64,000 bases of DNA from contig NZ_QUMQ01000001.1 of assembly GCF_003387075.1 (NCBI RefSeq), positions 2,294,001 through 2,358,000 on the forward strand, read 5' to 3'. The DNA comes from Asanoa ferruginea (lineage in GTDB: Bacteria; Actinomycetota; Actinomycetes; Mycobacteriales; Micromonosporaceae). The notes below the pieces were generated by a model. It was not told where the DNA came from. It was given only the letters and a program-made list of their open reading frames with translations, and did no database searches. The first letter of the stretch is position 1. Each line of letters opens with the position of its first letter. This document shows, one piece after another, positions 52,588 through 62,874 of the stretch. A program made the translations under genes and the position numbers.

Positions 52588-53409
52588 ATGCCCCGGCCGG
52601 GCCTGCCCAAGTTGGTCGCCACCGACCTCGACGGCACGATCGTGCGCAGCGACGACACGGTGTCCGCATTCACCCATGAGGTGCTCAACCGGGTGCGCGC
52701 CGCCGGCATCCCCATCGTCGGCGCCACCGGCCGCGGCCCGCGCCTGGCCGAGCTGACCCGCAACGACATCCGCGACGCCGACTTCCTCGTGATGGCCAAC
52801 GGGGGCCGGGTGGTCGACCAGACCGACCCGCTCGACCCGATCGTGCTGCGCGACGCCCGGCTGTCGGGCCAGGTGCTCGCGTCGGTGCTCGTCGACCTGG
52901 AGGCGGCGGTCGGTCCGCTCAACGTCATGGTCGAGGCGCTCGACGGGCACGACGAGCCGCTCTGGGGCGATGCCGACCCGGCGTGGCGCTACCCCGACCG
53001 GTTCGAGCCGCGCAGCCGCGCCGACTGCTTGGCCGGTGACGTGCTCAAGGCGTTCGCCCGCGCGCCCGGGCACGACGTCGACGAGTTGCTGGCGGCGGCA
53101 CACCGCATCGTCGCCTCGTCGGCCGCCAACGTCACCCAGGCCGGGCTCGGCTTCATCGAGATCCTCCCGCCCGGCGTCGACAAGGCGACCGGCCTCGCGG
53201 TGGTCACCGAGGCGATCGGTGTCGACCCCGGCGACGTGCTGGTCTTCGGCGACATGCCCAACGACCTGCCGATGTTCTCCTGGGCCGGCTGGGGCAAGGT
53301 GGCGGTGGCCAACGCGCACCCGCTGGTGCGGGCCGCGGCCGACGAGATCACCCTCAGCAATGACGAGGACGGCGTGGCCGTTTACCTCGACCGGCTACTG
53401 TCGCGATGA
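52588..53409 (+). CDS. HAD-superfamily phosphatase, Cof type
   Basis: A 273-residue HAD hydrolase of the Cof/type IIB class. Motif I is DLDGTIVRSDD with the nucleophile Asp, motif II ATGR, and motifs III/IV FGDMPNDLPMFSWAG with the metal-binding Asp pair. The cap is inserted between motifs II and III. It dephosphorylates sugar or cofactor phosphates. GAGGAGGAG precedes the ATG. The next gene is a paralogue overlapping by four bases. Confidence 0.9.
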   Translation: MPRPGLPKLVATDLDGTIVRSDDTVSAFTHEVLNRVRAAGIPIVGATGRGPRLAELTRNDIRDADFLVMANGGRVVDQTDPLDPIVLRDARLSGQVLASVLVDLEAAVGPLNVMVEALDGHDEPLWGDADPAWRYPDRFEPRSRADCLAGDVLKAFARAPGHDVDELLAAAHRIVASSAANVTQAGLGFIEILPPGVDKATGLAVVTEAIGVDPGDVLVFGDMPNDLPMFSWAGWGKVAVANAHPLVRAAADEITLSNDEDGVAVYLDRLLSR

Positions 53410-54200
53410 TGCTGATCGCCACTGATCTCGACGGAACCCTGCTCCGCGCTGACAAGACGATCAGCGCCCGCACGGCGGCCGCGCTGGACCGCGCGGCCGA
53501 AGCGGACCTGCCGGTCGTGCTGGTCACCGGGCGCCCGATCCGCTGGCTGAAGCTGGTCTACGAGCAGCTCGCCATTCCCCTGCCGGCGGTCTGCGCCAAC
53601 GGCGCGGTGGTCTACGACCCGGCCCGCGACCAGGTGCTCCGCGCCGACCCACTCGCGCCCGACGTGCTCGCCGAGATCGCCCGGCGGCTGGCCGACGAGG
53701 TGCCCGACGCGGTGCTGGCGGTCGAGATCGTCGACGGCCGGGAGATGCGCCACCAGGTCGAATACCCGATCCTGTGGGACAGCGCGCACGGCGGCGTGCG
53801 GGCCGTCGACGCGGTCGCCGAGTTGCTCACCGAGCCGGCCGTCAAGCTGCTGGTGCGCGCCGGCCAGCGCGATCCCGACGAGTTCACCGCCCGGATCGGC
53901 AAGGCGCTGCACGGCATCGCCGAGGCGACCCACTCGTCGCTGTCGGGTCTGGTCGAGGTCTCCGCCTCCGGTGTCACCAAGGCCGCCGGGCTGGCCTGGT
54001 ATTGCGACCGGCTCGGCGTGCCGGCCGCCCAGGTGACGGCGTTCGGCGACATGCCGAACGACGTGCCGATGCTGGCCTGGGCCGGCCGGGCGATCGCGGT
54101 GGGCAACGCCCATCCGGCGGTCAAGGAGGTCGCCGACGAGGTGGTCGCCTCCAACGAGGACGACGGCGTGGCGATCTACATCGAGTCGCTGCTGCCCTGA
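53406..54200 (+). CDS. HAD-superfamily phosphatase, Cof type, tandem paralogue
   Basis: A 264-residue Cof-type HAD hydrolase with ATDLDGTLLRADK (motif I), VTGRPIRW (motif II) and FGDMPNDVPMLAWAG (motifs III/IV). It is related to, but clearly diverged from, the preceding phosphatase, so the two probably have different substrates. The start ATG overlaps the upstream stop (ATGA), so the pair is translationally coupled. It converges on bpa. Confidence 0.9.
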   Translation: MMLIATDLDGTLLRADKTISARTAAALDRAAEADLPVVLVTGRPIRWLKLVYEQLAIPLPAVCANGAVVYDPARDQVLRADPLAPDVLAEIARRLADEVPDAVLAVEIVDGREMRHQVEYPILWDSAHGGVRAVDAVAELLTEPAVKLLVRAGQRDPDEFTARIGKALHGIAEATHSSLSGLVEVSASGVTKAAGLAWYCDRLGVPAAQVTAFGDMPNDVPMLAWAGRAIAVGNAHPAVKEVADEVVASNEDDGVAIYIESLLP

Positions 54201-54230
54201 TCGGTCACCGGCGTTAGCCGGTCTGGCCGG

Positions 54231-54839
54231 TCACAGGTATTGGCCGGTGCCGCGTCCCTCGGTGCCGGGCTGACCCGGGTTGGGCCCCGCGCCGGGCAGG
54301 CCGGGGATGACGCCCGGAACCGCGCCGGGCGGCAGCGCACGCTGGCCGCCGCGCATCCCCTCGAGCTGCATGCGGGCCGCCATCTGCTGGGCCACCAGGG
54401 CGGCCTGGATGCCGTGGAACAGCCCCTCCAGCCAGCCGACGAGCTGGGCCTGCGCGACCCGCAGCTCACCCTCGCTCGGCGTCGACGTCTCGCTGAACGG
54501 CAGCGACAGGCGCTCGAGCTCGTCGCGCAGCTCCGGCGCCAGGCCATCCTCCAGCTCGATGATCGAGCGCTGGTGGATGTCGCGCAGGCGGACCCGGCTG
54601 GCCTCGTCGAGCGGCGCCGCGCGTACCTCTTCCAGCAGTTGCTTGATCATGCTGCCGATCCGCATGACCTTGGCGGGCTGCTCGATCTGGCGACCCGGGT
54701 CTTCCTCGCCGCCGCTGCTGTCGGTGTCGACCGTGCCGACCGGCCGGCCATCCGGCCCGACCACCACCACGGTGCCCGACCGACGGTTGGGTTCGGCCTG
54801 CGCGTCCGGCGCTCCTGGGGTTTCGGTCATAGTCTCCAT
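54231..54839 (-). CDS. bpa: Bacterial proteasome activator
   Basis: A 202-residue protein of the Bpa family. The central helical part (about 60-165) has KVMRIGSMIKQLLEEVRAAP, RDIHQRSIIELEDGLAPEL and LVGWLEGLFHGIQAALVAQQ. A flexible Gly/Pro tail then ends in GQYL, the HbYX-type motif that docks on the 20S proteasome. Bpa rings open the 20S core without ATP and feed it unfolded proteins. ATG 54830, nine bases later, is an alternative start. The proteasome core and ARC genes lie outside this window. Confidence 0.93.
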   Translation of the reverse strand: METMTETPGAPDAQAEPNRRSGTVVVVGPDGRPVGTVDTDSSGGEEDPGRQIEQPAKVMRIGSMIKQLLEEVRAAPLDEASRVRLRDIHQRSIIELEDGLAPELRDELERLSLPFSETSTPSEGELRVAQAQLVGWLEGLFHGIQAALVAQQMAARMQLEGMRGGQRALPPGAVPGVIPGLPGAGPNPGQPGTEGRGTGQYL

Positions 54840-54883
54840 CTTTCCCCAACGCCCGTCGGGTGTGCTCCCCGGACCCGGCAAGC

Positions 54884-54889
54884 TAGCGT
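54884..54889 (+). promoter_or_regulatory. Minus-10 TAGCGT, leaderless hydrolase gene
   Basis: TAGCGT lies 7 nt before the ATG at 54897. Confidence 0.5.
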
Positions 54890-54896
54890 TCCGCAC

Positions 54897-55718
54897 ATGC
54901 CCGCACGCGAACCCGACCCGCGCGACGTGCTGATTCTTCCGGCACCGCCGCCGGACGCCGTGGTCGCCTACGGCCCACACCTCGACCACGTCGCTGACGT
55001 GCGGCTGCCGCTGACCAGGTCCGGGCCGTTGGTCGCGCCGCTGGTCGTGGTGATCCACGGCGGATTCTGGCGCGCCGAGTACGACCGGGCACACACCGGG
55101 CATCTCGCGGCCGCGCTGGTGGCCCTGGGCTACCCGGTCGCGCAGCTCGAATACCGGCGGACCGGGCCGGGGGCGCCGGGTGGCTGGCCGGCGACCTTCG
55201 ACGACGTCGTGGCCGGGGTGGAGGCACTGCCGGCGCTCGTCGCCGCGGTGGCCGCCTCGCTGGGGCGTCCCGCGCCGGCGCCCGGCCCACCGCTCCTTGT
55301 CGGTCATTCCGCGGGCGGTCACCTCGCTCTCTGGTACGCCGCCCATGCGCCTTCCGCACCCGCCGGCGTGCTGGCGCTGGCGCCGGTGGCGGACCTGGCC
55401 GAGGCACACCGGCTCGACCTCGACGGCGGTGCCGTGACGGCCCTGCTCGGTGGTGACCCGACCACCCGAGCGGCGGCCTACGCCGCAGCGGAGCCACTGC
55501 CGACGATGCCGTTGCGATCACCCACGGTGATCGTGCACGGCACGGCAGATGTGCAAGTACCGATCTCATTGAGCCGGGGGTACGCGTCAGCCGCGCGGGC
55601 CGGCGGTAGCGAAATCACGCTTTCAGAGCTTCCCAATGTGGGTCATTTCGAACTCATCGATCCCCGGTCGGCCGCCTGGCGCAAGGTGACAGAGGCGTTG
55701 CGGTCGTTGCAGTGGTGA
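54897..55718 (+). CDS. Alpha/beta-hydrolase, esterase/kynurenine-formamidase-like
   Basis: A 273-residue alpha/beta-hydrolase. The oxyanion-hole segment VVIHGGFWRAEYDR resembles kynurenine formamidases and small esterases. The nucleophile elbow is VGHSAGGHLALWY, the acid probably Asp in VHGTADVQVP, and the His in NVGHFELID. The cytoplasmic location is inferred from the absence of a signal peptide. The natural substrate is unknown. The leaderless minus-10 supports this start. Confidence 0.88.
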   Translation: MPAREPDPRDVLILPAPPPDAVVAYGPHLDHVADVRLPLTRSGPLVAPLVVVIHGGFWRAEYDRAHTGHLAAALVALGYPVAQLEYRRTGPGAPGGWPATFDDVVAGVEALPALVAAVAASLGRPAPAPGPPLLVGHSAGGHLALWYAAHAPSAPAGVLALAPVADLAEAHRLDLDGGAVTALLGGDPTTRAAAYAAAEPLPTMPLRSPTVIVHGTADVQVPISLSRGYASAARAGGSEITLSELPNVGHFELIDPRSAAWRKVTEALRSLQW

Positions 55719-55803
55719 TCATCTTCATTGACGCAGCGTCGTTGAGACGGTAGGAACCCGGGGGAGTGTGGGAACCAGCCCACCGGTCGGGGAAGGTCGT
55801 TCC

Positions 55804-57006
55804 GTGTCGCAGATGGATCGTCGCCAGGCGTTGCGGTTGTTCGCCGCGCTGGGCGCCGCGGGCTTCGCCGCGGGTTGCGGCACCGGTAACACCGAGGAAG
55901 CGGCCGCAGGCAACCAACTGGTCAGCGACAAGCCGATCAAAATCGGTCTGATCGCGCCGCAGACCGCGGGCTACAAGAGCGTCGGTGACGAGATCGCCCG
56001 GGGCTTCAACCTGTTCCTCGAGACCAACGACCAACGGCTCGGCGGCCACCAGGTGCAGCTCGTCGTCGCCGACGAGGGCGACACGGTCGAGTCCGGCAAG
56101 GCCGCCCTCGACGGTCTGCTCAAGCAGGGCGTGCTGGCGTTGACCGGCGTCGTCAACTCGACCGTCATGCTCGGCATCCGGGACACCGTCGAGCAGGCCC
56201 GGATCCCGCTGATCGGTTCCGTCGCCTCGCCGTCCGACCTCCAGAGCGTGGTCTACATCTGGCGCACGTCCTATGTGAACAACGAGCCCGGCCAGGCGCT
56301 CGGCCACTGGGTGGCGCAGGAGACCAAGGGCAAGGTCGGCATCATCGCGCCCGAATACGAGGCCGGCCACGACGCCGTCGACGGGTTCCGCAGCACGTTC
56401 GGCCCCACCGACCCGCGGATCTCCGCCGCTCCGGTGTGGACGGAATACAACGCGGAGCCGACGAAGAACTTCTTCCGCGCCAAGATAGATGAGCTACGCC
56501 AGAGCAACCCGAAGACCATCTACTGTTTCTACAGTGGACAGGCCGGCGTCGAGTTCTTGCGCCAGCTGCACGCCGACGGTTTCCGCGGCGCCGTCTACGC
56601 GCCCGGCTTCCTCACCGAGGGCGAGGTGCTCGGCGAGCTGAAGGGCCCGGAGGCCAGCAACATCTTCACCGCGCTCAACTACTCGCCCGACCTCAACAAC
56701 GCCGCCAACCGCGAGTTCGCGTCCGCCTACCGCAGCGCCTACGACGCGACCCCGACGACCTACGCGGTGGCCTCCTACGACGCCGCCCAGGCGATCGACA
56801 AGGCCGTGCGGATCGCCGGGCCCGACCCGACGCCGCAGGCGGTCAACCTGGCCATGGGCAAGATCGGCGTGATCGACAGCCCGCGCGGCGAGTGGCAGTT
56901 CAACCAGACCCGCACCCCGCAGCAGAAGTGGTACCTGCGCGAGGTGCGCCGCGACGGCCCCGTGCTGTCGAATGTCGTGATCAGCGAGCTGGCGACGCTG
57001 GGCTGA
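55804..57006 (+). CDS. Branched-chain-amino-acid-type substrate-binding lipoprotein
   Basis: A 400-residue periplasmic-binding-protein-fold lipoprotein (Leu/Ile/Val or urea type). The leader has a twin-arginine-like DRRQALRLF and a lipobox FAAGC with Cys25. The two-lobed binding domain starts KIGLIAPQTAGYKSVGDEIARGFNLF and contains VGIIAPEYEAGHDAVDGFR. GGGGAAGG precedes the GTG. No permease or ATPase genes are adjacent, so it either works with a distant transporter or as a sensor. The ligand is unknown. Confidence 0.88.
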   Translation: MSQMDRRQALRLFAALGAAGFAAGCGTGNTEEAAAGNQLVSDKPIKIGLIAPQTAGYKSVGDEIARGFNLFLETNDQRLGGHQVQLVVADEGDTVESGKAALDGLLKQGVLALTGVVNSTVMLGIRDTVEQARIPLIGSVASPSDLQSVVYIWRTSYVNNEPGQALGHWVAQETKGKVGIIAPEYEAGHDAVDGFRSTFGPTDPRISAAPVWTEYNAEPTKNFFRAKIDELRQSNPKTIYCFYSGQAGVEFLRQLHADGFRGAVYAPGFLTEGEVLGELKGPEASNIFTALNYSPDLNNAANREFASAYRSAYDATPTTYAVASYDAAQAIDKAVRIAGPDPTPQAVNLAMGKIGVIDSPRGEWQFNQTRTPQQKWYLREVRRDGPVLSNVVISELATLG

Positions 57007-57823
57007 GGCCGGCCCCTGCGCGCAACTCCGCGACGCAGCACTTCACGCTGCCGCCGCCCTTCTTGAGCTCGCTCAGCTCGACCGGGACGGGCGTGTAGCC
57101 GGCCGCGGCCAGCTTCGCGGCTAGACCGGTCGCTTCGGCGTTGAAGACGACGTTGCGGCCGTCGCTGACCAGATTCAGTCCGAACGCCAGCGCGTCGGCC
57201 TCGTCGGCGACCAGGGCGTCGGGGAAGAGCTGGGCCAGCACCCGCTGCGAGCCCGGGGAGAACGCGCCCGGGTAGTAGGTGATCCGTGCGTCGTCGAGCG
57301 CGGCCAGGGCCACGTCGAGGTGGTAGAAGCGCGGGTCGACGAGCTGGAGCGAGATCACCGGGCGGCCGAGGGCCTCCTGGGCGTGGCTGTGCGCCACCGA
57401 CTCGGTGCGGAAGCCATGACCGGCAAGGATCATTCCGCCGTACGCCTCGGGCAGGTAGGCGAAGTCACCCTCGCCCTCGTTGATCTCCGTGGGCTCGACG
57501 TAGGGCCAGCTGTGCTCGGCGTAGAAGGCCCGGTGCGCGGCTGCCTCGGCGGCCCGTTGCGGGTAGCGGAAGCGGGCGCCGAACGCCGTACCGTCGACGG
57601 TGAAGGCGCCGTTGGCGGCGTAGACCATGTCGGGCAGCCCGTCTTCGGCCGGCAGCACGTGGACCGTGTGGCCGAGCCCGGTGAGCGTCTCGCGGAGCAC
57701 CTGCCACTGCTTCAGGGCCAGCTCCGGGTCGACCGGCGCGCTCGTGTCCATCCAGGGATTGATCGCGTAGGTGACCGCGAACCATTCCGGCGGGCACATG
57801 AGATATGTCCGCATACGTGGCAT
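56981..57823 (-). CDS. ddaH: Dimethylarginine dimethylaminohydrolase-like enzyme
   Basis: A 280-residue guanidine-modifying enzyme. Features: MCPPEWFAVTYAINPWM, PDMVYAANGAF with the substrate-binding Asp, EGEGDFAYL, the catalytic His168 in RFYHLDVAL, and the nucleophile at Cys262/263 in GGSVKCCVAEL. It would hydrolyse methylarginines, or arginine, to citrulline. The Lrp regulator is divergent, as in known actinobacterial ddaH loci. ATG 57823 follows AAGGACGAG; the ATG at 57847 falls inside a palindrome and lacks a ribosome site. The 3' end overlaps the lipoprotein gene by 26 nt. Confidence 0.85.
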   Translation of the reverse strand: MPRMRTYLMCPPEWFAVTYAINPWMDTSAPVDPELALKQWQVLRETLTGLGHTVHVLPAEDGLPDMVYAANGAFTVDGTAFGARFRYPQRAAEAAAHRAFYAEHSWPYVEPTEINEGEGDFAYLPEAYGGMILAGHGFRTESVAHSHAQEALGRPVISLQLVDPRFYHLDVALAALDDARITYYPGAFSPGSQRVLAQLFPDALVADEADALAFGLNLVSDGRNVVFNAEATGLAAKLAAAGYTPVPVELSELKKGGGSVKCCVAELRAGAGLSPASPAR

Positions 57824-57838
57824 CCGCTCGTCCTTCAC

Positions 57839-57851
57839 GATCACCATGATC
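57839..57851. promoter_or_regulatory. Candidate Lrp operator in the ddaH promoter
   Basis: GATCACCATGATC is a perfect 5-3-5 palindrome between the ddaH-like and Lrp genes. On the minus strand it covers a CATGGT minus-10 that follows TTGACC (57871-57866) by 16 bp. Binding would block ddaH transcription. The size fits an Lrp half-site arrangement only loosely. Confidence 0.45.
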
Positions 57852-57905
57852 AGGTACTCTTCGTGGTCAAGACAGCCGAATCTCTTGCTTGGGAGAGGCG
57901 AAACG

Positions 57906-58364
57906 TTGCAGATCGACGACGTAGATCAGCGAATCATTGCGTCGCTCGTCGCTGACGCCCGCGCCTCCTACTCGGAGATCGGAGAACGGGTCTCGCTCTC
58001 GGCCCCGGCGGTGAAGAGGCGCGTCGATCGCTTGCGCTCCGCGGGCGTGATCCGCGGCTTCACGGCCGTCGTCGACCCGGCCGCGGTGGGCTGGACGACG
58101 GAGGCGTTCGTCGAGCTCTACTGCACCGGCCGCACCACGCCCGCCCAACTCACGGTCGCGACCCGGCGGCACCCGGAGGTGGTCGGCGCCTACACGGTCT
58201 CCGGCGAGGCCGACGCCCTCGTGCACCTGCGGGCCGCCGACATCGCCCACCTGGAGCAGGCCCTGGAGCGGCTGCGGGCCGAACCGTTCGTCACCTCGAC
58301 CCGCAGCATGATCGTGCTGAGCCGGCTGGTCGACTCACCGAACGTGGTGCCGGCGGAACGGTGA
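57906..58364 (+). CDS. Lrp/AsnC-family transcriptional regulator
   Basis: A 152-residue regulator. The N-terminal helix-turn-helix (about 1-55) has DDVDQRIIASLVADARASYS, ERVSLSAPAVKRRVDRLRSAGVI. The C-terminal ligand-binding RAM/ACT-like domain (about 65-145) has FVELYCTGR and EVVGAYTVSGEADALVHLRA. It probably senses an amino acid such as arginine or ornithine and controls the divergent DDAH-like gene. Start TTG 57906 follows GGGAGAGG. Confidence 0.9.
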   Translation: MQIDDVDQRIIASLVADARASYSEIGERVSLSAPAVKRRVDRLRSAGVIRGFTAVVDPAAVGWTTEAFVELYCTGRTTPAQLTVATRRHPEVVGAYTVSGEADALVHLRAADIAHLEQALERLRAEPFVTSTRSMIVLSRLVDSPNVVPAER

Positions 58365-58389
58365 GGCGGGTGGCCGCGTCAAACCCGGC

Positions 58390-60273
58390 ATGACCAACGC
58401 CCGTCGCGCCGCGTACGCCGTTGTCGCTGTCTTGCTCGTCTCGGGGTGCACAGCTTCCCCCTCGCCCGCTCCCGCCCCGGCCCCGGTCGTGGCCCTCCCC
58501 GCACCGGCGTTCAAGCTGGTCGCGTTCGACTCCTGCGCCGACGTGCTCGGCGGTCTGAAGAGCGCCGCCAAGGCAGTGGTGACGCCGTGGGGGTTCAACG
58601 GGGGCATGATGTCGGCCCGCCGGACGGCAAGCGCCTTCGCCGCGGGAGACCAGGCGGCCAAGTCGGTGCCCGAGCCGGCCGGAGTCGGCTTCTCCGGAAC
58701 CAACACCCAGGAGACCGGCGTCGACGAACCCGACCTGGTCAAGACCGACGGACGCCGAATCGTCACCGTCACGGGCGGCATGCTCCGGGTGCTCGATCCC
58801 GCGACCCGCCGGATGACCGGCCGCCTCGACCTCACCGCCGGAACCGACGAATACCTCGCCGACGCCAGTCTGCTGCTGTCCGGCGACCGGGCGCTGGTGC
58901 TGATGTCGCAGGGTGGTCCCGGCCGGCGTTTTCCCGCCGCTGACGTGGCCACTGCCCAGTCCAAGCTGCTTTCCTACGGAGACCTGACGTTCCGGTTGGT
59001 CACGGTCGACCTGGCGGGGACGCGGCCCGCGGTGGTCAGCTCGTTCACGATCGACGGCGCGCTGGTCGACGCCCGCCAGGTCGGCGCCACGGCGCGGATC
59101 GTGGTGCGCAGCACGCCGCGCCTCGACTTCCCGTTCCGGGAAAACGCGACCGAGGCGCAACGCCTGGCCGAGAACCGGCGGGTCATTGATCGGTCCACGG
59201 TGGATGATTGGCTGCCGCGCTGGAGCTCCGACAGTGCTAGCGGGCACATTGACTGCGGTGCGGTCCGCAAGCCGGACACGTTCTCCGGCACGTCGCTGCT
59301 GACGGTATTGAGCTTCGACATCGGGGCCCCGCTGGGCACCGGCGACCCGACCACGATCGTCGCGGACGGCAACTTCGTCTACGGCAGCGGCGCGAGCCTC
59401 TACGTGGCGAACGACGAGAGTTGGCGCGGCATCCGCTCTGACTTCGGAACGGCGTTCGTCCTGCCGCAGGACCAGGAAACGAAGATCTACCGCTTCGACA
59501 TCACGGGTTCCGGGCCGCCACGGTTCGTCGCCTCTGGCTCGGTGCCCGGGACGTTGCTCAACCAATACGCGATGTCTGAATACGACGGCCACCTGCGCGT
59601 TGCCACCACGCGGGCATCGTCGTCGTCGGTCTACGTGTTGAGGTCGACCGACATGTCCAAGGTTGGCTCGGTCGGCGGCCTGGGCAAGAACGAGCAGATC
59701 TACGCGGTCCGCTTCACCGGCCCGGTCGGCTACGTGGTCACGTTCCGCCAGACCGATCCGCTCTACACTCTCGACCTGCACAACCCGGCATCCCCAGCCG
59801 TGGCCGGCGAACTGAAGATCAATGGCTACTCGTCCTACCTGCACCCGATCGACGCCAACCACGTGATCGGCGTGGGCCAGGACGCCGACAGCCGCGGCCG
59901 CGTGCTGGGCACCCAGGTCTCGGTGTTCGACGTATCCGACCTGTCAAGCCCGCGCCGGGTCGCCCAGCACGTGGTGAAGAACGGGTGGTCGGAGGCCGAG
60001 TCCGACCCGCACGCCTTCCTCTACTGGCCCGAGACGGGCTTGCTGGTCGTGCCATTGTCGGCTCAGACAACATACGGCGCACTGGCGTTGAGGTTGTCCG
60101 GGTCGCGGCTGGAGCAACTCGCAACGGTTCGCCACCCGACGTCGACGCCATGGCAGGGGTCGATCCGGCGCTCGTTGATGGTGGGCGGGACACTGTGGAC
60201 GGTGTCAGACGGCGGCATGCGCGCCACAGACACAACGTCAATGCGCGACGCGGCCTGGATTCCGTTCACGTAG
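58390..60273 (+). CDS. Secreted beta-propeller lipoprotein
   Basis: A 627-residue exported lipoprotein with lipobox LLVSGC (Cys20) and a short Pro/Ala spacer. The remainder matches the secreted beta-propeller family with GTNTQETGVDEPDLVKTDG at about residues 102-120, the family entry motif. Blades contain LRVLDPATRRMTG, LDLHNPASPAVAGELKINGY and SVFDVSDLSSPRRVAQ. It presumably forms a surface scaffold; no enzyme site is seen. The GC content is slightly lower than in its neighbours. It is followed by a repeat-rich gap. Confidence 0.87.
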   Translation: MTNARRAAYAVVAVLLVSGCTASPSPAPAPAPVVALPAPAFKLVAFDSCADVLGGLKSAAKAVVTPWGFNGGMMSARRTASAFAAGDQAAKSVPEPAGVGFSGTNTQETGVDEPDLVKTDGRRIVTVTGGMLRVLDPATRRMTGRLDLTAGTDEYLADASLLLSGDRALVLMSQGGPGRRFPAADVATAQSKLLSYGDLTFRLVTVDLAGTRPAVVSSFTIDGALVDARQVGATARIVVRSTPRLDFPFRENATEAQRLAENRRVIDRSTVDDWLPRWSSDSASGHIDCGAVRKPDTFSGTSLLTVLSFDIGAPLGTGDPTTIVADGNFVYGSGASLYVANDESWRGIRSDFGTAFVLPQDQETKIYRFDITGSGPPRFVASGSVPGTLLNQYAMSEYDGHLRVATTRASSSSVYVLRSTDMSKVGSVGGLGKNEQIYAVRFTGPVGYVVTFRQTDPLYTLDLHNPASPAVAGELKINGYSSYLHPIDANHVIGVGQDADSRGRVLGTQVSVFDVSDLSSPRRVAQHVVKNGWSEAESDPHAFLYWPETGLLVVPLSAQTTYGALALRLSGSRLEQLATVRHPTSTPWQGSIRRSLMVGGTLWTVSDGGMRATDTTSMRDAAWIPFT

Positions 60274-60313
60274 GCCGGCGGGACGGGTATTTTCGGCGAC
60301 CGAACTCGGGGTT

Positions 60314-60428
60314 GACGCCAGGCTCCGCGCAATCGAGCGCCAGGATTGCCGGCCGGCGCCAAGCTTCCGGGCGGAAACCGGCCGTTCCGAGCTGGCGCCA
60401 GGTTTCCGGGCTGGCGCCTGGCTTGGGG
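60314..60428. repeat. Degenerate GGCGCCAGG-type repeats
   Basis: Five variants of GGCGCCAGGYTTCCGG lie at about 60314, 60335, 60355, 60393 and 60412, spaced roughly 20 or 40 nt. Several include the palindrome TGGCGCCA. They fill the 198-bp gap between convergent genes. Confidence 0.6.
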
Positions 60429-60471
60429 CAGCGACAGGTATTCGAGCTAGCGCTAGACGCCGGCGGGTTGG

Positions 60472-61554
60472 CTACAGATACATGCCGGTCTTGGGTTCTT
60501 CGGCGGCGCGGTTGGCGGGCTTGTCGCCCTCGCCGAAGAAACGCTTGCCGCCGAACTCGCCGTGTAGCCGGTCGTCGAGTTCGTCGGCGAGCCCGGTCAT
60601 CACCTGGACGGCGAGCATCAGGTGGGTCGCCTGGAAGTTGCGGCCGAACACGGGGATCGACGCCCAGACGGTGTCGTTGGTGCAGTAGAGACGACCGATC
60701 GGCATGCGGTTGGTCAGCTCGGAGAGCTTGACGTAGAGCTGCTCGGTCGGCTCGATCTCGGTCAGCACGGGCGAGAAGACGTCGACGAGCGGCGGGTTGT
60801 CGCGGACGCGCACGAACACCATCGCCGAGCCCGCCCGGATCCCGATGTCGCCGTCGGAGTCGACCTTGAGAGCCTCGGCATCCGACTTCATCAGCGTGGC
60901 GACCACGGTCCGGACCCGCTCCTCGAGCCCGATGCTGTCGTCTTCGACAACGGTCTCGCCCCGGGCGGCCATCGCCTGGCCCGCCTTAATGGCCGCGTCG
61001 AGGTCAAGGTTGCCGGCCAGCTCGGGCCGCGCGGTGGCAAGCGCCTCCACGTCGATGGGCTCGTCTTCGGCGTCGTGCACGAGGTAAACCAGGAACGCCG
61101 GATGCGGAGCGCCGTAGACGTCGCGCAGCGTGCGCGAAACGGTCGTGGCAATCTTCGACGCATCCTTGATCGAGGCGTGCAGCCCGAACTGCTCTCCCGA
61201 ATCCGGCAACACCCCCGGCGGCGACCAGCCGAGCGCGACAAGGTCTGCGACAGCAGCGCGATCAAGCCGGTACCCCTGCGGCAACCCGGCGTTGCCAACG
61301 GCGAGCGCCCGCACGAGCCCGTCACCGAGGATCAGCAACTCGACGGAGTAAACGGCCGTACCCGTCCCCGAGGCGGTCGGATCGAGGGTCAGCTCAACCC
61401 GAGCGCCAACCGGCAACTCGGGAAGCATCTTCGCCAGCGCCCGCGCAAAGTCCCGCCAAGCCTCGGTGACCTTGCCCCTCAAATCGGCCGTGCTGGCCTC
61501 GTCGAGCAGGATGGCGTCTGTAAGCCCATCGTCCCCCGCACTCGCTGACGTCAT
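60472..61554 (-). CDS. YbjN/T3SS-chaperone-like protein with C-terminal GMYL
   Basis: A 360-residue soluble protein with two CesT/YbjN-like chaperone domains: about 25-155 (WRDFARALAKMLPELPVGAR, LHASIKDASKIATTV) and about 210-335 (LEERVRTVVATLMKSDAEAL, VFVRVRDNPPLVDVFSPVL, GRLYCTNDTVWASIPVFGRN). Such folds bind peptides. A flexible tail of about 20 residues (ANRAAEEPKT) ends GMYL, with penultimate Tyr and a hydrophobic residue before it. This is the pattern of proteasome-docking HbYX tails, like the GQYL of Bpa in this window. Docking is inference. GGAGG precedes the ATG. Monocistronic. Confidence 0.75.
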   Translation of the reverse strand: MTSASAGDDGLTDAILLDEASTADLRGKVTEAWRDFARALAKMLPELPVGARVELTLDPTASGTGTAVYSVELLILGDGLVRALAVGNAGLPQGYRLDRAAVADLVALGWSPPGVLPDSGEQFGLHASIKDASKIATTVSRTLRDVYGAPHPAFLVYLVHDAEDEPIDVEALATARPELAGNLDLDAAIKAGQAMAARGETVVEDDSIGLEERVRTVVATLMKSDAEALKVDSDGDIGIRAGSAMVFVRVRDNPPLVDVFSPVLTEIEPTEQLYVKLSELTNRMPIGRLYCTNDTVWASIPVFGRNFQATHLMLAVQVMTGLADELDDRLHGEFGGKRFFGEGDKPANRAAEEPKTGMYL

Positions 61555-62002
61555 GATCGCCTCCGTCCGTCAGCCACACCCTACCCACGGCACCGGTGCC
61601 CACGGATAGGCCGGTGTGAGTCGGATAACGGCATTACACCGCGCTTACGCCCAGTCTGCTGACCGAGCCCTCACGATCTCGCTCCCGCCCCAGGCCAGAC
61701 CCATGATCATTGCTCGTCCCAGCACGGATTCTCGGTGGCTGAGACCGGCCGCGGCAAGATCAGACCCGCAACGGCCGCAGCTAGATCGTTCGCCTTGCTC
61801 GGCCCGGTCCACCGCAGGGCACGCTTCCCGGCGGACGCTACCCGCACCTTCGGTGCCGGCCCACCCTGCTTGATCTGCCAGACCGCAGCTAGGGACCTTG
61901 TTTACCGACATCTGGACGTACTCAGGCCGACCCTCGGCACAAAGCTAACGCGGTCGGCCAGCGAGGCGAAGTGCTCGCCATCGAGGACGGGGGAGAACCT
62001 GC
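61555..62002. other. Gene-free stretch between YbjN-like and DUF6457 genes
   Basis: Short open frames on both strands lack protein character, ribosome sites and codon bias. No tRNA, terminator or long repeat was seen. It may be the remains of a decayed gene. Confidence 0.5.
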
Positions 62003-62293
62003 TCAGCGATCGCGATCGCGGTCGCGGTCGCTGGCAGCGGCCGGGCCGGCCTGGGCCGTAGCGAGGGCAGTCAACGCCGCCGCCGCTTCCTGTGGGTCCG
62101 CGCCCCGCCCGACGGCGAGCCCCAGCAGGTAGGCCGTCACCGGCGCCGCCGGCCGAACCGTGTTGTGTGCGACGTCCCTGGCCAGGTTGAGCACGAGCGA
62201 CACGGAGGCATCAGCCGGTGCGATGCCGAGCTCGGCGCATGCGGCCTTGACCCACTCGTCGAGCGTCATACCGCTTTCTCCGCTGTCAGCCAT
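62003..62293 (-). CDS. DUF6457-like protein
   Basis: A 96-residue helical protein: [16 protein letters not shown], then LVLNLARDVAHNTVRPAAPVTAYLLGLAVGRG. It matches the small DUF6457 family encoded next to molybdopterin genes. The C-terminus ends in four Asp-Arg pairs coded by a hexanucleotide repeat (62006-62029). It overlaps mobA by 28 nt and is co-transcribed. The function is unknown, possibly molybdenum-cofactor handling. Confidence 0.8.
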   Translation of the reverse strand: MADSGESGMTLDEWVKAACAELGIAPADASVSLVLNLARDVAHNTVRPAAPVTAYLLGLAVGRGADPQEAAAALTALATAQAGPAAASDRDRDRDR

Positions 62294-62874
62294 TCCCGAA
62301 CCCTACGGAGATCCTCCTCGGTATCACAGTCGAACCACGGTGGCGGCCCAGCGACATCCCACGACACCTCAACCACGTCGAGTGGCTGGACGAGCGCCCG
62401 CATGGACGCACCGCTCAGCCCACCGGCCCGGTCGCGAGCCAGCTCCGCGATGCTGCGCCGCAACGCGTCTGCCCGCCACGCCCCGCACAAGAGCTGCCTC
62501 CGCCCGTCGTGGTCGACGAACAGCGCACCGTCTGCTGTGGATAGACGCGCGCGCAGTGTGGCAACGGCGTTCACAGTCAGCAACGGCAGGTCGCCGGCGA
62601 CGACGACCACGTCGCGCGAATTCCGGTCGATCGCCGCCAACCCCGCCGCGACCGCGGCGACCGGCCCGCCGCCCGGTGGATCCTCGCGCGTGTAGCCCAC
62701 GCCCTCAGGCACATCGCCGCTTCCACCGACAACTACGCGGGCATCGGCACCGACCAGGGCATCCAGCACCCGGTCGCGCATCGAACGACCGGCCACCAGC
62801 ACCGACGGCTTATCGGGCCCACCCATCCGCCGGCCCGAGCCACCGGCCAGCACAACGGCCGCGAACCCCGTCAC
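62266..62874 (-). CDS. mobA: Molybdenum cofactor guanylyltransferase
   Basis: A 202-residue nucleotidyltransferase that attaches GMP to molybdopterin. It has the nucleotide loop [28 protein letters not shown] with the metal-binding Asp, and [10 protein letters not shown]. The C-terminus [17 protein letters not shown] (substrate Asp, N-x-D-T variant) fits MobA. It is next to fdhD, which also serves formate dehydrogenase, and upstream of the DUF6457 gene. GTG start with AAGGGAG. Confidence 0.9.

What the first reader, a model, noticed from the sequence alone, without database searches (positions are those of the whole stretch)
60472..61554. A YbjN/CesT-like chaperone ending in a proteasome-docking-like GMYL
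The protein has two peptide-binding chaperone-like domains, a flexible tail and the terminal residues GMYL. Known 20S activators (Mpa/ARC, Bpa, VAT-like ATPases) dock through a C-terminal hydrophobic-Tyr-X motif; the Bpa in this same window ends GQYL. This suggests an undescribed client-delivery or gating factor for the actinobacterial 20S proteasome. A chaperone that both holds unfolded peptide and docks on the proteasome would be new.
Basis: partly seen in the sequence, partly recalled or inferred. Interest (0 to 1): 0.72.

Follow-up and report, generated by a model that had tools for sequence, protein, structure and literature searches.

The report
Chaperone-like protein with proteasome-docking tail
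A chaperone-like protein of soil actinobacteria keeps, at the end of an otherwise changeable tail, the same kind of four-residue hook that known partners use to plug into the bacterial proteasome, so it is probably an unrecognised partner of that protein-destroying machine, although binding has not been shown.

Summary
In detail: window 60472-61554 (-) encodes 360 aa with TY-Chap3 and TY-Chap1 domains (YbjN/CesT fold), a disordered linker and GMYL. The tail is not chance. In 109 distinct orthologous sequences G is 109/109, Y 109/109, L 108/109 (one I); the second position is M, Q or G, the linker varies, and codons vary synonymously. This matches the Mpa/Bpa docking motif, whose Q is dispensable in published mutants; 46 of 46 Bpa tails read in a broad sample are GxY[LI]. 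TY-Chap1 proteins in families f10, f25, f32, f35, f41 and f49 end GGYL, GLYL or SPYL. The same genome holds two DUF5925-AAA ATPases and a Cpn10-like protein ending GxYL; homologues in the one other genome read also do. Most likely this is an ATP-independent 20S docking adaptor. Binding and chaperone activity are untested. The 20S co-occurrence test of the tail is underpowered (12/62 places with 20S, 0/9 without, p=0.34). Some 20S-bearing lineages lack the gene. Archaeal PbaB is a functional precedent.

The parts
60472..61554 (-). gene of the TY-Chap3-TY-Chap1 protein, 360 aa, stop TAG included
61090..61464 (-). TY-Chap3 domain, residues 31-155
   Evidence: Pfam PF22552 E 2.5e-26; ten-residue means of pLDDT 67-95 here
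60532..60927 (-). TY-Chap1 (YbjN/CesT-like) domain, residues 210-341
   Evidence: Pfam PF22551 E 1.2e-43; ten-residue means of pLDDT 55-82; Foldseek 2plg, 3kxy, 1xkp, 6vu7
60487..60531 (-). variable, probably disordered linker, residues 342-356
   Evidence: pLDDT < 50; high entropy in 109 sequences except the last three residues
60475..60486 (-). GMYL tail, residues 357-360, proteasome-docking-type motif GxY[LI]
   Evidence: G 109/109, Y 109/109, L 108/109 with synonymous codons
54231..54830 (-). Bpa (bacterial proteasome activator) of the same window, ends GQYL; block-syntenic neighbour, for comparison
   Evidence: PF10759 E 2.7e-72; tail at 54231-54245

Best explanation
The protein is an accessory partner of the actinobacterial 20S proteasome. 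Its C-terminal GMYL sits on a flexible linker and inserts, like the GQYL of Mpa and Bpa, into the pockets between PrcA subunits. Its two YbjN/CesT-type domains (TY-Chap3 and TY-Chap1) bind extended or partly unfolded client segments, without ATP, and bring them to the alpha ring, either opening the gate themselves when oligomeric or working beside Bpa. Shown here by sequence: the tail, its selection, its likeness to the natural motif of Bpa, the fold class, presence of 20S genes in the genomes tested. Inferred: docking (about 0.8), client delivery rather than assembly or inhibition (about 0.5).
For: Tail conserved with synonymous codons after a variable linker. Neighbour control: of nine neighbouring genes only Bpa shows the same pattern. 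x is free in published mutants of the known activators (passages). x varies in natural Bpa, including GMYL itself and one GQYI; 46 of 46 Bpa tails from the 46 of 54 genomes with a match are GxY[LI]. GxYL on divergent two-domain orthologues (GGYL, f35) and on single-domain TY-Chap1 proteins in further families; the tail label needs 4 changes on a tree of 57 domains against 15.3 in shuffles. PF00227 in 36 of the 36 relatives tested (of 41) and in 25 of 25 class genomes with an A1 match, against 311 of 394 overall (Fisher p=0.004, not corrected for kinship). Other GxYL gene ends of the genome are Mpa, Bpa, a Cpn10-like protein and two AAA ATPases, besides one acyltransferase; homologues of the Cpn10-like and AAA proteins in one other genome keep the tail. 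Fold of type III secretion chaperones and YbjN.
Against: No binding, gating or client data exist. TY-Chap chaperone function is itself a prediction (PMC9503650 passages). The gene is dispensable to the proteasome: 30 of 200 family genomes have no match, and the five of these tested for 20S have it. Of 62 TY-Chap1 places in genomes with a 20S match, 50 have no tail. The 20S co-occurrence test of the tail is not significant (p=0.34). Nearness to Bpa is part of a conserved block of unrelated genes. The f49 tails are SPYL, not GxYL. Only a monomer was modelled; no ring is predicted or tested.
Confidence: 0.6

Rival explanations
1. It is a 20S assembly or maturation chaperone, the bacterial analogue of Pba1-Pba2: it caps half-proteasomes through its tail and leaves when a regulator arrives.
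For: Pba1/Pba2 dock on the alpha ring with HbYX ends (recalled; the listing shows papers on this); a non-ring protein fits a capping factor.
Against: Recalled view that actinobacterial 20S assembles without helpers; five family genomes without the gene keep 20S genes. A peptide-binding fold is not needed for capping.
Confidence: 0.12
2. It is a competitive cap or inhibitor that occupies alpha pockets and limits Mpa or Bpa access, in the manner of eukaryotic PI31 (recalled): folded domain, disordered tail, HbYX end.
For: Same gross anatomy of folded part, disordered linker and docking-type tail.
Against: Does not by itself explain two conserved domains of a peptide-binding type.
Confidence: 0.12
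3. The C-terminal motif serves something other than the proteasome, for example a PDZ-type protease or receptor, or is a degradation signal.
For: Binding to the proteasome is not shown by any search.
Against: PDZ ligands depend on the last and third-last residues (recalled), but here the third-last is the freer one while Gly and Tyr are fixed, as in Bpa and as the published Q-dispensability suggests.
Confidence: 0.1
4. The conservation is an accident of close kinship or of an overlapping DNA or RNA element.
For: Nearly all of the 109 sequences come from one family; mechanical ORFs on the other strand overlap the gene and were not tested as genes.
Against: Gly, Tyr, Leu and stop codons all vary; linker and length vary; GGYL is found at 36-41% identity of the C-terminal part in another family.
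Confidence: 0.02

Closest known systems
Bpa / PafE (Rv3780 family, PF10759)
   Same: ATP-independent (published), variable linker, terminal GxY[LI], same genomes
   Different: Bpa is a dodecameric ring (PMC8223512 passage) of helices (recalled); this protein has two YbjN/CesT-type domains and no match to the Bpa profile
Mpa / ARC
   Same: terminal GQYL (own genome)
   Different: AAA+ hexamer that recruits pupylated substrates (passages); this protein has no ATPase domain
Archaeal PbaB (PAC1-PAC2 homologue)
   Same: reported as both ATP-independent proteasome activator and chaperone, acting through C-terminal segments (PMC3605417 abstract)
   Different: another protein family and domain of life; PbaB is a homotetramer, oligomer here unknown
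TY-Chap1 / TY-Chap3 families of ADP-ribose-linked conflict systems
   Same: domains PF22551 and PF22552, predicted peptide-binding chaperones (PMC9503650 passages)
   Different: here a gene with a GxYL tail; no ADP-ribose gene among the 10 neighbouring frames scanned
Pba1-Pba2 / PAC1-PAC2 assembly chaperones
   Same: chaperones that dock on the alpha ring with a C-terminal motif (recalled; listing)
   Different: no PAC2 match here; assembly role not indicated

Membership tests
TY-Chap1 / TY-Chap3 (YbjN, CesT superfamily) | match over the curated Pfam cut-off | tested here: met
   148.3 and 93.1 bits against a cut-off of 27
TY-Chap1 / TY-Chap3 (YbjN, CesT superfamily) | CesT/YbjN fold | tested here: met
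   Foldseek 2plg E 6.7e-5, ExsC 2.6e-4, SycH 1.6e-3, SycN-YscB 6.6e-3, YbjN 8.2e-3, on a model of mean pLDDT 67.8
TY-Chap1 / TY-Chap3 (YbjN, CesT superfamily) | binding of unfolded peptide | not testable with these tools
   predicted in PMC9503650 only (passages)
GxYL-docking partner of the bacterial 20S (as Mpa, Bpa) | terminal GxY[LI] conserved among orthologues | tested here: met
   109 of 109 distinct sequences
GxYL-docking partner of the bacterial 20S (as Mpa, Bpa) | 20S genes in the same genome | tested here: met
   PF00227 in 36 of 36 genomes tested out of the 41 (21 of those 41 hold the gene in full) and in 25 of 25 class genomes with an A1 match
GxYL-docking partner of the bacterial 20S (as Mpa, Bpa) | tail absent where 20S is absent | tested here: inconclusive
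   0 of 9 places without 20S match, 12 of 62 with, p=0.34; 4 of the 5 such genomes tested hold Bpa
GxYL-docking partner of the bacterial 20S (as Mpa, Bpa) | binds 20S through the tail | not testable with these tools
   no complex prediction or assay available
Bpa (PF10759) | match to the Bpa profile | tested here: not met
   only the two TY-Chap families at E up to 1
PAC2 / Pba assembly chaperones | PAC2 family match | tested here: not met
   only the two TY-Chap families at E up to 1

The most novel reading that the evidence does not exclude
GxY[LI] at a C-terminus is a general docking code of the actinobacterial 20S proteasome, and beyond Mpa and Bpa the core has a whole set of unrecognised partners: TY-Chap/YbjN client adaptors, DUF5925-AAA ATPases and a Cpn10-like protein, recruited several times, which would make the bacterial proteasome a hub with interchangeable caps.
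Probability: 0.45. Interest if true: 0.88.

Novelty: new variant of a known kind. Interest (0 to 1): 0.75.

Why it matters
The bacterial proteasome partners named in the papers I saw in passages are Mpa/ARC, Bpa/PafE and Cpa. How clients that are not pupylated reach the core is largely open. A YbjN/CesT-type protein under selection to keep the docking tail would link a widespread, poorly understood fold to the proteasome, and gives a cheap direct test: a C-terminal peptide and a two-residue deletion. The published search that found Bpa was limited to genes of M. tuberculosis (PMC4254994 passages). Whether that species has an orthologue was not tested by name; in the class sample the matches in family f8, which I take to include Mycobacterium, have no tail (6 genomes, 10 places).

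Tried and rejected
Nearness to Bpa as functional linkage: Bpa lies downstream within the fetched flank in 73 of 80 named loci, 72 on the same strand, but MobA, DUF6457, AsnC and DDAH are found in 72 of 72 loci with full flanks and Bpa in 67. This is block synteny and weak evidence.

Raw count of GxYL sites in the genome: not above the reversed-pattern control. My estimate of about 1.6 such gene ends by chance uses assumed composition and an assumed 8300 genes.

20S co-occurrence of the tail: underpowered and weakened by incomplete assemblies. Three of the 71 TY-Chap1 tails were not resolved; read they have none. PF00227 also rings in 10 of 14 control genomes, so one match is not strict proof of PrcBA; most genomes here show two.

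Cpn10-like tail: one search matched 1163 plasmid records; I read two, Nonomuraea (tail) and one Rhizobium whose alignment also ran to the query end but whose GroES ends GVLA, no tail.

Plasmid collection with P0001: one weak partial hit. Literature: (YbjN + proteasome + actinobacteria) nothing; (TY-Chap) two papers, one relevant; (GMYL + proteasome) virus-related listings; one paper, off topic by its title; (DUF5925) nothing; no title or abstract start names a TY-Chap or YbjN protein.

Rows left out of the 109-sequence count: L118 and L175-L180 (genomes already used), partial or paralogous matches L022-L027, tail-less distant hits, and 15 repeats among 124 loci. The tree used 52 of the 71 class places (19 weak ones left out) plus 6 rows from relatives; 57 of 58 gave a domain. 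The structure alignment used the window protein and 56 of 80 named loci, one family.

Full report
What is there. The open frame 60472-61554 on the minus strand gives 360 residues ending TGMYL. Pfam finds TY-Chap3 (31-155) and TY-Chap1 (210-341), both far over the cut-off. The AlphaFold2 model, from the window protein and 56 family sequences, has mean pLDDT 67.8: ten-residue means 67-95 in the first domain, 55-82 in the second, residues 341-360 below 50. Foldseek places it with Tll0839 (2plg, E 6.7e-5), ExsC, SycH, the YopN chaperone SycN-YscB and E. coli YbjN (E 8.2e-3). The fold claim is sound; chaperone activity of TY-Chap domains is a prediction in print (PMC9503650, passages).

Is the tail selected? 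Among 41 genomes (own and 40 relatives), 21 hold a full-length orthologue and all 21 end GMYL or GQYL. In 80 named loci 79 end GMYL and one GMYI. Of 124 loci put together, 109 sequences are distinct: Gly 109, Tyr 109, Leu 108 and Ile 1, with Met 104, Gln 3, Gly 2 at the free position; Gly, Tyr and Leu codons vary and all three stop codons occur. The linker varies in sequence and length, apart from three fairly conserved residues just before the motif. As a control I read the ends of nine neighbouring genes, Bpa among them, in the named loci (41 to 78 distinct sequences each): only Bpa shows a fixed end after an equally variable stretch (mean entropy 1.98 against 1.96 here). The SBP gene also has a nearly fixed end (50 of 52 ATLG) but after a conserved stretch (0.72), and the ends of DDAH and MobA are partly conserved after conserved stretches. 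In the family sample 170 of 200 genomes have a match, and every match in the printed, cut list runs to the last profile position.

Is it the proteasome motif? Mpa and PafE/Bpa need GQYL, and the Gln is not essential (PMC12288473 and PMC6017811, passages). I searched 54 chosen genomes for Bpa; 46 had it and all 46 tails were read: 26 GQYL, 8 GMYL, 8 GPYL, and one each of GLYL, GAYL, GTYL and GQYI. In the named loci, all from the family of the window, 58 distinct Bpa all end GQYL. The freedom seen in the window's protein (M, Q, G; L or I) is thus the same in kind as that of a proven activator, and GMYL itself is the Bpa end in some families; within its own family Bpa is uniformly Q where this protein is mostly M.

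How far does it reach? Two-domain orthologues end GGYL in another family (f35: L120, L121) and GMYL in f13 (L019). Single-domain TY-Chap1 proteins end GLYL in f10 (L022), GGYL in f32 (L137/L204), GLYL in f41 (L208), GGYL in f25 (L223, L226, L227) and SPYL in f49 (L207, L210). A scan of the same 394 class genomes with PF22551 gave 71 places in 58 genomes; 12 bear such a tail, 59 do not. On a tree of 57 domains the tail label needs 4 changes (bootstrap 3-4) against 15.3 in shuffles; well-supported branches force at least 2. The two-domain group of the window is tailed in all 10 of its rows (support 80/90). So the tail was gained more than once, or is old and was lost.

20S co-occurrence. PF00227 was found in 311 of 394 class genomes and in 36 of 36 genomes tested out of the 41. 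All 25 class genomes with an A1 match have it (p=0.004 without correction for kinship). For the tail itself the test is weak: 12 of 62 places with, 0 of 9 without, p=0.34; of the nine genomes without a 20S match I tested five for Bpa and four have it, so they are probably incomplete assemblies. The gene is accessory: five family members without it (G007, G010, G016, G018, G019) have 20S, as do relatives from other families that had no match; and all 13 genomes of genus g12 that the family table lists lack it, with 10 further genomes without match not shown.

Other GxYL ends in the genome. Two pattern scans gave 10 sites, a number that does not exceed the reversed control. Read as frame ends they are Mpa (GQYL), Bpa (GQYL), this protein, a 111-aa Cpn10-like protein (GLYL, PF00166 E 2.2e-15), two DUF5925-AAA ATPases 51% identical (GLYL, GFYL), a membrane acyltransferase (GRYL, probably chance), two frames without a Pfam match (L030, L034) and one short frame not scanned (L033). 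In Nonomuraea gerenzanensis, another order, the DUF5925-AAA homologue (55% identity) and the Cpn10-like homologue (54%) also end TGLYL, and Bpa ends GPYL. A Rhizobium GroES, from a lineage I take to lack the 20S, ends without a tail. It suggests a wider set of docking proteins of the chaperone and AAA kind.

How it most likely works. Shown: fold class, tail, selection on it, motif likeness, presence of 20S genes. Inferred: the tail docks in the PrcA pockets; the domains hold clients; delivery is ATP-independent. Rivals are an assembly chaperone, an inhibitory cap and a non-proteasomal ligand. The last is disfavoured because the freest position is the third-last residue. A functional precedent outside bacteria is PbaB (PMC3605417, abstract), so the combination of chaperone and docking is not new to biology; for bacteria and for this fold I saw no report.

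Genome context is a conserved block MobA-DUF6457-TYChap-AsnC-DDAH-Bpa-HAD with variable insertions. It gives no operon evidence. The report rests on sequence; every functional step needs the bench tests listed.

Noticed in passing
L036:1501-1836 (-), G000:C1 near 2831055: Cpn10/GroES-like protein of 111 aa ending TGLYL; the Nonomuraea homologue (54% identity) also ends TGLYL, a Rhizobium GroES does not.
   Followed up: partly
L037:1501-2643 (-) and L028:403-1515 (+), outside the window: Two DUF5925-AAA ATPase paralogues, 51% identical, ending TGLYL and SGFYL; a Nonomuraea homologue ends TGLYL. Candidate new proteasomal ATPases; the word DUF5925 is in no paper of the library.
   Followed up: partly
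L146-L174, L291-L307: Natural Bpa ends vary as GxY[LI] with x = Q, M, P, L, A, T; one ends GQYI.
   Followed up: yes
G215, G293, G276, G285, G333, G104 (family f49): Six of six genomes tested have a PF00227 match but no Bpa match; two of them hold a TY-Chap1 protein ending SPYL.
   Followed up: no
G043, G053, G089, G282: Genomes without a PF00227 match but with Bpa, probably incomplete assemblies.
   Followed up: no
L024, L025, L026: Paralogous TY-Chap1 proteins in the same family with a C-terminal extension and no tail.
   Followed up: no
window 53406-62874: Conserved gene block MobA-DUF6457-TYChap-AsnC-DDAH-Bpa-HAD across the named loci, with optional beta-propeller, SBP and hydrolase genes.
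   Followed up: yes
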